From Desulforamulus ferrireducens (lineage in GTDB: Bacteria > Bacillota > Desulfotomaculia > Desulfotomaculales > Desulfotomaculaceae): a stretch of 64,000 nt of DNA. The position numbers were made by a program, and so were the translations under genes. Where the stretch lies: the NCBI RefSeq assembly GCF_002005145.1, contig NZ_CP019698.1, positions 1,240,001-1,304,000 of the forward strand, written 5' to 3'. The notes beneath the pieces are model-generated. The model did no database searches. It saw only the letters and a list, made by a program, of their open reading frames with translations, and was not told the DNA's origin. This document shows positions 380 to 57,806 of the stretch, piece after piece (the first letter of the stretch is position 1; the number at the start of each line of letters is the position of its first letter).

Positions 380-826
380 ATGAGTGTTCCTGAACAAAAA
401 GTTCAAACAGAATTTGAACCTAAGATTATCGCTATCGTTTGCAACTGGTGTACCTATACCGGTGCTGACCTGGCTGGTACCTCCCGTATTCAATATCCCC
501 CCAACGTACGGATCATCCGGGTCATGTGCAGTGGTGCTGTTGATCCCCTGTATATGATTAAACCAATTTTAGATGGTGGTGACGCCGTTCTGGTGGGTGG
601 ATGACACGAAGGTGACTGCCACTATGGTAGTGGCAATTACAAGGCACGTCGTAAAGTAGCCGTTGCTAGAAACGTACTCCAGCAATTAGGTATCCCCGAA
701 GAACGGTTGTGGTTACGTTTTATCAGTGCTTCACAGGGGGCCTACTTTGGCGAAGTTATTACAGAAATGACCAACAAGCTGAAGCAATTAGGACCAAACC
801 CCCTGCGTAAGAACTGGGAAATCTAA
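380..826 (+). CDS. mvhD: MvhD-like iron-sulfur protein with in-frame UGA read as selenocysteine
   Basis: MvhD is the small [2Fe-2S] protein that passes electrons between hydrogenase or formate dehydrogenase and HdrA. The N-terminal part (CNWCTYTGADLAGTSR, then VMCSGAVDP) is typical. An in-frame TGA at 602-604 follows VLVGG and precedes HEGDCHYGSGNYKARRK. MvhD proteins normally have Cys here (GGCHxGDCHY), so UGA most simply encodes Sec. Reading through gives 148 residues, the usual family length, ending at TAA 824-826. A hairpin just after the UGA fits a bacterial SECIS. AGGAGG at 366-371 lies 8 bases from ATG 380; GTG 377 is a possible alternative. The gene sits between hdrA and an FrhB/FdhB-like gene. 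VhuD of Methanococcus is a known selenoprotein of this family. Most gene finders would break this gene at the UGA. Confidence 0.92.
602..635 (+). promoter_or_regulatory. UGA codon and SECIS-like hairpin in mvhD
   Basis: The UGA is at 602-604. The stem is TGCCAC (617-622) paired with GTGGCA (630-635), with loop TATGGTA, which carries GGU. The stem starts 12 bases after the UGA and the loop lies about 18-25 bases after it, within the spacing seen for bacterial SECIS elements bound by SelB. The hairpin lies in coding sequence (DCHYGSGN). Confidence 0.75.
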
Positions 827-46700: not shown

Positions 46701-46754
46701 TTGCATTAATCCAGGAATTTAGTGGTATAATGAAACTTGGTAAATTTATCAAGT
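46701..46754 (+). promoter_or_regulatory. Promoter and palindromic operator of the SelW-like gene
   Basis: TTGCAT (46701-46706), 19-base spacer, TATAAT (46726-46731). At 46735-46754, ACTTGG TAAATTTA TCAAGT is a 20-base palindrome with one mismatched pair, covering the expected transcription start. Confidence 0.6.
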
Positions 46755-46770
46755 CAAGGGAGGCTATATA

Positions 46771-47010
46771 ATGGCTGGGGAAGTTAAGTTATCTATTGAG
46801 TACTGTACTGCTTGAGGTTATCTGCCAAAGGCAGCCGGTCTGGCTGAAATACTTTTACGGTTATACAAAAATAAAATTAGTTCCTTCGAATTAATCCCCT
46901 CCAGCGGTGGAGTATTTGAAGTTAAGAAAAATGGCGAGCTTATTTTCTCTAAGAAGGCACTGGGCAGATTCCCAGAAAAGGAAGAGATAATAGCTAAATT
47001 AGATTTATAG
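46771..47010 (+). CDS. SelW/Rdx-family selenoprotein (CxxU motif)
   Basis: 79 residues including selenocysteine. MAGEVKLSIEYCTAUGYLPK carries the redox motif CxxU, with TGA at 46813-46815. The rest (AAGLAEILLRLYKNKISSFELIPSSGGVFEVKKNGELIFSKKALGRFPEKEEI) is the Rdx fold (SelW/SelT/SelH) with the conserved G-x-FEV and LIFSK strand pair. Relatives with Cys have CxxC in the same place, so UGA as Sec is the simplest reading. The downstream hairpin matches a SECIS. AGGGAGG lies about 8 bases before ATG. Rdx proteins are thioredoxin-like thiol/selenol redox proteins. The gene has its own promoter and a bidirectional terminator, and lies after cysK. Without recoding it would be a 14-residue peptide. 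Confidence 0.93.
46813..46846 (+). promoter_or_regulatory. UGA codon and SECIS-like hairpin in the SelW-like gene
   Basis: CAGCC (46832-46836), loop GGTCT, GGCTG (46842-46846). The apical GGUCU is the same as in the E. coli fdhF SECIS. The loop begins about 21 bases after the UGA, in the range accepted by bacterial SelB. A competing CTGCC-AAA-GGCAG hairpin at 46822-46834 overlaps its 5' arm. Confidence 0.82.
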
Positions 47011-47018
47011 ATAATGCT

Positions 47019-47060
47019 AAAAATAAAAGTTTCCCAACAACCGGGAAACTTTTATTTTTT
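47019..47060. terminator. Bidirectional terminator between selW-like and VanW/G5-like genes
   Basis: AAATAAAAGTTTCCC (47021-47035) and GGGAAACTTTTATTT (47043-47057), 15-bp perfect stem with A and T tracts at both ends. Confidence 0.9.
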
Positions 47061-56864: not shown

Positions 56865-57239
56865 ATGAGACCATTGCCGAAAATATCCGATGCTGAGTGG
56901 CAGGTTATGAAAGTCATTTGGGCTGAGTCACCTGCTACAGCCAATGATGTAATAAAAAAACTGGACGGTGTTATGCCCTGGAATGACAAAACCATTAAGA
57001 CCCTGTTAGGCAGGCTGGTTAAGAAAGGAGCAATTTCTTACCAAAAGGAGGGGAGGACTCATGTTTATTTTCCCCTTGTTTCTGAAGAGGAGTGCATTAA
57101 GGAGGAAAATCGCTCCTTCCTGAAAAGAGTCTATGACGGAGCCCTTAGTGTCATGTTTGTTAATTTTCTTGAACAGCACAAACTATCGCCCAAAGAAATT
57201 GAAGAGTTAAAAGAAATTCTGGATAAAAAACAGCAGTAA
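56865..57239 (+). CDS. blaI: BlaI/MecI-family repressor
   Basis: 124 residues. The winged helix is ISDAEWQVMKVIWAESPATANDVIKKLDGVMPWNDKTIKTLLGRLVKKGAISYQKEGRTHVYFPLV, and the C-terminal dimer helices are FLKRVYDGALSVMFVNFLEQHKLSPKEIEELKEILDKK, both typical of BlaI. The protease-sensitive region between them is kept. BlaI represses bla genes until the BlaR1 sensor triggers its cleavage. Here the adjacent blaR1 is reduced to a fragment, so this BlaI may no longer be inducible. AAGAGGTG precedes ATG. Operator-like sites lie before this gene and before the bla fragment. Confidence 0.93.
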   Translation: MRPLPKISDAEWQVMKVIWAESPATANDVIKKLDGVMPWNDKTIKTLLGRLVKKGAISYQKEGRTHVYFPLVSEEECIKEENRSFLKRVYDGALSVMFVNFLEQHKLSPKEIEELKEILDKKQQ

Positions 57240-57252
57240 AGGGGTATTAATC

Positions 57253-57417
57253 ATGGAAAATTTCAATTTTATCCCTTGGCTGCTGAAAACATCCTTTGCG
57301 GGAAGTTTACTGGTTGGGTTAATTTTACTCATCAGGTTTATTTTTAGGAATGAATTAGCTCATATAAAGAGAAAGGATCTTTGGCTCAATTGGCTGCTGT
57401 ATATGCTGCGTGTTTAG
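57253..57417 (+). pseudogene. blaR1 remnant with internal and 3' deletion
   Basis: 54 residues: MENFNFIPWLLKTSFAGSLL, VGLILLIRFIFRNELAHIKR, KDLWLNWLLYMLRV. The first 32 residues look like the first membrane helix of a BlaR1/M56 sensor. The text then jumps to NELAHIKRKDLWLNWLLY, which resembles the HELAHxKRKDL zinc motif that normally lies about 150 residues further on. So an internal segment is missing, and so are the rest of the peptidase domain and the penicillin-binding sensor domain. The zinc-motif His is Asn. A spaced ATG follows blaI by 13 bases, as in intact operons. It cannot act as a sensor. Confidence 0.82.
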
Positions 57418-57733
57418 TTCCATCCCATTTTTTGTGGGAATTATCTCTCTGTATCACGCCACTTTGTAAGGCGATAAGAGAGTTCATTATTTTAAAGGAC
57501 GACATGGGGGAGAACCTTTTTTGGGAATTCATTTCATTATAGATATCCAACTGACCAGATTGAATATCCTTGACCACCAAGGTACCAGTTAAACCATTGA
57601 ATGAGTTGCTTAGGTCTACAATATTTTTAACAGTATTGCCCGGTGGGGCTGTGGGGTTACTTTCTGCAATAGGTTTGCACCCTACTACTAGGGTAAGTGC
57701 AAGTAATAGAAACAGCAGCTTAGTTGCTTTCAA
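57386..57733 (-). pseudogene. Class D beta-lactamase, truncated
   Basis: About 115 residues on the minus strand. AGGAGG points to TTG 57733. The signal peptide and lipobox (LLFLLLALTLVVGCKP) are intact. The mature part starts like a class D (OXA) enzyme: GLTGTLVVKDIQSGQLDIYNEMNSQKRFSPMSSFKIMNSLIALQSGVI, where SSFK holds the active-site Ser and Lys (usually STFK), and NSHKKWDGTK follows. The text then changes to HAAYTAAN and stops; these residues are read from the opposite strand of the blaR1 remnant. About 150 residues, including the SxV and KTG motifs, are missing. One deletion that joined the two convergent genes explains both losses. Confidence 0.83.
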
Positions 57734-57806
57734 TGGCTTATCCTCCTCACAGATAGTTTCTTGCACAATGGCTCTCAGAGTTAACTAAAAAACACCTCCT
57801 TTTAGG

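What the first reader, a model, noticed from the sequence alone, without database searches (positions are those of the whole stretch)
46771..47010. SelW/Rdx selenoprotein with an fdhF-like SECIS loop
MAGEVKLSIEYCTAU carries CxxU in an Rdx fold. The hairpin CAGCC-GGUCU-GGCUG has the same apical loop as E. coli fdhF. Two unrelated UGA genes in one window, each with a hairpin, make recoding in this genome much more likely. Bacterial SelW proteins are few and poorly studied.
Basis: partly seen in the sequence, partly recalled or inferred. Interest (0 to 1): 0.72.

Follow-up and report, generated by a model that had tools for sequence, protein, structure and literature searches.

The report
SelW-like selenoprotein gene with SECIS hairpin
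The finding is real: a small redox protein gene whose internal UGA codon is almost certainly read as selenocysteine, but it belongs to a selenoprotein family already catalogued in bacteria and in close relatives of this organism.

Summary
The ORF at 46771-47010 encodes a 79-residue Rdx/SelW-like protein (Pfam Rdx E=1.6e-22; NCBIfam SelT/W/H over cut-off) with UGA in a CxxU motif. The genome has selA, selB, a UGA-reading tRNA-Sec and a selD that itself carries UGA; three FdhA-like and four FlpD-like genes carry in-frame UGA too. In 113 genomes of the class, all 23 Rdx matches contain one in-frame TGA. After the UGA, nine congeners show purifying selection (pN 0.16, pS 0.70). The hairpin CAGCC-GGUCU-GGCUG fits the published bacterial SECIS model. 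In the window alone it is not significant, because the peptide largely forces it (synonymous-codon shuffles reach 5/5 pairs with P about 0.12). Across 30 relatives it is decisive: 98% paired against 76% after shuffling and 18-46% when slid, with a wobble-wobble pair switching between AU, GC, UA and CG without a break. It is not novel: a SelW-like selenoprotein was listed for Desulfotomaculum reducens (as I recall, now the same genus) in 2006, and C. jejuni SelW has been confirmed by ribosome profiling and peptides. The biochemical role remains open.

The parts
46723..46731 (+). extended -10-like promoter element TGGTATAAT (no good -35)
   Evidence: sequence; a TGATATAAT element lies at the same place in the nearest relative L022; the consensus scan did not list it
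46756..46763 (+). Shine-Dalgarno AAGGGAGG, 7 nt before ATG
   Evidence: sequence
46771..47010 (+). selW-like gene, 79 aa with Sec at residue 15 (C12-T-A-U15)
   Evidence: Rdx PF10262 E=1.6e-22, NF041051 and TIGR02174 over cut-off, orthologues, purifying selection after UGA, predicted fold TM 0.88-0.91 to solved Rdx proteins
46813..46815 (+). in-frame UGA, selenocysteine codon
   Evidence: TGA inside all 23 Rdx matches of the class and in 28 of 29 relatives from genome contigs; the exception has Cys
46832..46846 (+). SECIS hairpin CAGCC-GGUCU-GGCUG, loop 21 nt after UGA
   Evidence: RNAfold, bSECIS rules, covariation, same core in three FdhA-like genes of this genome
47025..47060 (+). intrinsic terminator (AAAAGTTTCCC...GGGAAACTTTT then T run), shared with the convergent gene
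   Evidence: sequence, by eye; not listed by the consensus scan; most genus relatives show a hairpin with a T-rich tail right after the downstream stop
380..826 (+). second UGA gene: FlpD/MvhD-type delta subunit with Sec codon at 602-604 and hairpin UGCCACUA-UGG-UAGUGGCA (corroborating; a separate finding)

Best explanation
This is a selenoprotein gene of the SelW-like (Rdx, CxxU) family, probably transcribed alone and ended by its own terminator. When the ribosome reaches UGA 46813, the hairpin 21 nt downstream is bound by the genome's SelB carrying Sec-tRNA-Sec, Sec is inserted at residue 15, and translation continues to the TAG at 47008. The product folds as a small thioredoxin-like (Rdx) protein whose Cys12/Sec15 pair sits in the loop between strand 1 and helix 1. 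It most likely works as a thiol/selenol oxidoreductase, forming a reversible selenenyl-sulphide that reduces a peroxide or a partner disulphide. Shown here: the gene, its conservation, the machinery, the covarying hairpin and the predicted fold. Inferred: Sec insertion in vivo and the redox role (I would give the redox role about 0.75). Unknown: substrate and reductant.
For: Family. Machinery in the same 3.24-Mb genome: selA next to selB, selD with its own UGA, tRNA-Sec with anticodon TCA. Nine UGA genes of known selenoprotein kinds found there: SelW, SelD, 3 FdhA-like, 4 FlpD. UGA kept in 23/23 Rdx matches of 113 class genomes. Post-UGA pN/pS 0.16/0.70 in nine congeners. Hairpin covariation: 98.0% of cells paired against 76.3% shuffled (0/500) and 18-46% for slid versions, covariation score 0.600 against 0.152. 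The pair at columns 21-33 joins two third-codon positions and takes AU, GC, UA and CG in 30/30 without a mismatch, with at least 9 changes on the protein tree. Precedent: C. jejuni SelW translated through UGA with peptides beyond it (PMC11955535).
Against: The hairpin in the window alone is not significant given the encoded peptide (P about 0.12). Isolated-hairpin energy is only -6.9 kcal/mol, although the 48-nt fold is -10.5. A competing CUGCC-AAA-GGCAG hairpin can be drawn in this sequence (46822-46834), though the minimum-energy fold does not choose it. No expression or selenium data for this organism. The protein tree is poorly resolved (4 starred branches), so the count of changes is rough. 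Nothing here tests a redox activity.
Confidence: 0.95

Rival explanations
1. UGA 46813 is an ordinary stop: the gene is a pseudogene or makes only a 14-residue peptide, and the rest is decaying Rdx sequence.
For: Standard table 11 reading gives only 14 codons; the single-sequence hairpin is not significant.
Against: Sequence after UGA is conserved at protein level in nine congeners with near-saturated synonymous sites; one TGA and no other stop in all 23 class matches; the frame stays open to a similar C-terminal end in the relatives, mostly with a terminator-like hairpin behind it in the genus.
Confidence: 0.02
2. The UGA is read through without SECIS, by a near-cognate tRNA, as Trp, Cys or Arg.
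For: Read-through cannot be excluded from sequence alone.
Against: Complete Sec machinery; covarying hairpin at fixed distance; the single non-UGA homologue in the set has Cys there, as for Sec/Cys exchange; the best solved relatives have Cys at this position.
Confidence: 0.02
3. The hairpin is only a by-product of the peptide A-A-G-L-A, or a weak transcription terminator, and whatever directs Sec insertion is another structure.
For: The peptide alone gives 3.7 of 5 pairs on average; the terminator scan listed this hairpin.
Against: Third-codon positions that the peptide leaves free covary without a break; the tail AAATACTTTT is not a proper T run; distant relatives with other residues keep the pairing. 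In Tissierellia-type relatives the hairpin has moved, so the exact element can differ by lineage.
Confidence: 0.04

Closest known systems
Bacterial SELENOW-like selenoproteins (PF10262, CxxU); reported for Desulfotomaculum reducens by Zhang and Gladyshev 2006 (PMC1794560)
   Same: Same family and CxxU motif; D. reducens is, from my own knowledge, now placed in Desulforamulus, the genus of this window (named congeners D. putei and D. aeronauticus)
   Different: Only the species; no new domain or motif
Campylobacter jejuni SelW (PMC11955535)
   Same: 80-81 aa SelW with a UGA read by tRNA-Sec; the window protein passes the cut-off of the NCBIfam model SelTWH_Campy
   Different: There translation past UGA is shown by ribosome profiling and peptides; here it is inferred
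Solved bacterial CxxC Rdx proteins (2fa8, 2obk, 2p0g, 3dex, 2oka, 2ojl)
   Same: Fold: TM 0.86-0.91 to the predicted model, 30-36% identity
   Different: Cys instead of Sec; slightly longer chains
Mouse selenoprotein W (2npb)
   Same: Rdx fold and CxxU (the latter from general knowledge); TM 0.71, weak sequence match
   Different: Distant in sequence (26% in the fold alignment); eukaryotic SECIS lies in the 3' UTR (general knowledge)
E. coli fdhF SECIS
   Same: GGUC(U) at the apex, similar distance from UGA
   Different: fdhF stem is shorter or bulged; here a perfect 5-bp stem

Membership tests
SelW-like / Rdx (PF10262) | score over curated cut-offs | tested here: met
   79.9 bits against 22.6; 95.2 against 88 and 66.2 against 34.2 in NCBIfam
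SelW-like / Rdx (PF10262) | CxxU (or CxxC) between strand 1 and helix 1 of a thioredoxin-like fold | tested here: met
   C12, U15; strand 5-12, helix 18-31 in the model, pLDDT 83.8; fold matches
Selenoprotein (bacterial) | in-frame UGA with conserved coding sequence after it | tested here: met
Selenoprotein (bacterial) | selA, selB, selD and tRNA-Sec in the genome | tested here: met
Bacterial SECIS (bSECIS model, PMC13188914) | loop 3-9 nt, stem 4-16 bp, G in first two loop positions, 16-37 nt from UGA, MFE at most -7.5 | tested here: met
   loop 5, stem 5, G first, 21 nt, -10.5 kcal/mol for UGA plus 45 nt; the isolated hairpin is -6.9
Bacterial SECIS (bSECIS model, PMC13188914) | pairing conserved by compensatory change | tested here: met
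Selenoprotein (bacterial) | selenium present in the protein | not testable with these tools
   needs 75Se labelling or mass spectrometry
SelW-like / Rdx (PF10262) | redox activity of the CxxU pair | not testable with these tools
   needs biochemistry

The most novel reading that the evidence does not exclude
In this lineage Rdx proteins are obligately Sec, with no Cys form kept, and the SECIS has shaped the protein: the unrelated SelW and FdhA genes of one genome share the AGLA peptide, encoded by the same GCCGGTCTGGCT stretch, just downstream of Sec, because the RNA hairpin rather than the protein is what is conserved there.
Probability: 0.35. Interest if true: 0.4.

Novelty: new member of a known kind. 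Interest (0 to 1): 0.22.

Why it matters
It adds a well-supported case to a common but functionally unstudied selenoprotein family. The strong wobble-wobble covariation gives a clean set for studying how a coding-region SECIS constrains a protein, and an all-Sec clade makes the question 'why Sec and not Cys' testable. It does not change what is known about recoding.

Tried and rejected
Rfam scan of the window: no match at gathering score, so Rfam neither supports nor opposes the SECIS reading. A codon-usage scan for UGA-interrupted genes found the two real cases (602 and 46813) among ordinary gene boundaries. An operon with cysK was considered: cysK lies directly upstream in several congeners but is 2.8 kb away in one and not found near selW in three others, so a functional link is not claimed. 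The terminator reading of the hairpin was rejected (see rivals). The literature searches found no function for bacterial SelW-like proteins; the 2026 review lists them as predicted with high confidence.

Full report
OBSERVATION. The window carries an ORF from ATG 46771 to TAG 47008-47010, interrupted at codon 15 by TGA 46813-46815; with TGA read as U the product has 79 residues and the motif YCTAUGY. A Shine-Dalgarno sequence AAGGGAGG lies 7 nt before ATG, an extended -10 element at 46723-46731 and a bidirectional terminator-like hairpin at 47025-47060 (by eye). A second UGA gene, an FlpD/MvhD-type subunit, lies at about 380-826.

WHAT IT IS. The protein is a clear Rdx family member with solved bacterial CxxC relatives. 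A model built on 24 relatives matches them with TM 0.86-0.91 and mouse SelW with 0.71; the CxxU pair lies between strand 1 and helix 1.

MACHINERY. selA and selB are neighbours (near 2.25 Mb), tRNA-Sec has anticodon TCA, and selD is present and carries an in-frame UGA itself. Three FdhA-like genes and four FlpD genes have an in-frame UGA, each followed by a hairpin within the distance set for bacterial SECIS elements.

RELATIVES. Among 113 genomes of the class, 22 have Rdx matches, 23 in all, each with exactly one TGA inside; none is open without it. selA is over its cut-off in 107 of the 113 genomes, so the presence of Sec machinery does not explain why only a fifth have SelW. In genome contigs 28 of 29 relatives, from Bacillota to Acidobacteriota, Planctomycetota and Thermodesulfobacteriota, have TGA; an Anaerolineales protein has Cys. 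Among nine congeners non-synonymous differences after UGA average 0.16 per site and synonymous 0.70.

HAIRPIN. It meets the bSECIS rules given in PMC13188914. A control matters here: when codons are replaced by synonyms at window codon usage, 3.7 of 5 pairs still form on average and 5 of 5 in about 12% of draws, so one sequence proves little. In an ungapped alignment of 30 relatives 98.0% of cells pair, against 76.3% after shuffling (0 of 500 as high) and 18-46% when the partner strand is slid. Two of the five pairs join third codon positions. The pair at columns 21-33 shows AU, GC, UA and CG with no mismatch in 30 sequences, and the pair at 24-30 shows CG, GC, UA and AU; on the protein tree these need at least 9 and 4 changes, though that tree is poorly resolved. 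The coding sequence does not cause this. The 30 sequences are those of the main hairpin register; eleven Tissierellia-type and other Clostridia relatives, most of which pair differently, were left out of this alignment and are reported as such.

SAME CORE IN FDHA. The three FdhA-like genes of the genome carry AGCC-GGUCU-GGCU at 18 nt from UGA. SelW and FdhA thereby share the peptide AGLA after Sec with the same codons, although the proteins are unrelated.

FUNCTION. By family knowledge the CxxU pair of a thioredoxin-like fold points to a thiol/selenol redox role. Substrate and reductant are unknown, and gene context gives no firm hint: cysK is a frequent but not constant neighbour.

NOVELTY. 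Zhang and Gladyshev listed SelW-like among the selenoproteins of Desulfotomaculum reducens in 2006 and noted few Cys homologues in Sec-using organisms (PMC1794560). Reviews list the family as known, epsilonproteobacterial SelW and its SECIS were described in 2015 (PMC4607533), and C. jejuni SelW is confirmed experimentally (PMC11955535). The present gene is a further, well-supported member, not a surprise.

Noticed in passing
L039:1477-2367 (G013:C109): A distant SelW-like Sec domain (ITYCVEUGF) is fused in frame to a DUF2703 domain (Pfam E=8.6e-38); neither review read here mentions DUF2703. Other members of this second subfamily are in L038, L040, L041, L042 and L092.
   Followed up: partly
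L046, L048, L050, L054, L056, L057, L058: In Tissierellia-type relatives the hairpin after UGA appears shifted about 4 nt towards UGA, with AGUU at the loop (for example AGAGC-AGUU-GCUCU), so the SECIS seems to have moved while the UGA stayed.
   Followed up: partly
window 380-826: FlpD/MvhD-type gene with Sec codon at 602-604 and hairpin UGCCACUA-UGG-UAGUGGCA; the genome has four such UGA genes and a fifth FlpD domain without UGA inside an open frame of 732 codons.
   Followed up: partly
G000:C1:299688-300056 and 308193-308561: Two FlpD copies 8.5 kb apart have the same score and identical sequence around the UGA, suggesting a recent duplication.
   Followed up: no
window 56865-57766: A BlaI-like repressor gene stands next to a short reverse-strand ORF that resembles the start of a class D beta-lactamase; by eye it looks truncated.
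   Followed up: no
G070 (L036): This 84% complete genome has a SelW-like UGA gene but only a weak selA match; the missing selA may be an assembly gap.
   Followed up: no
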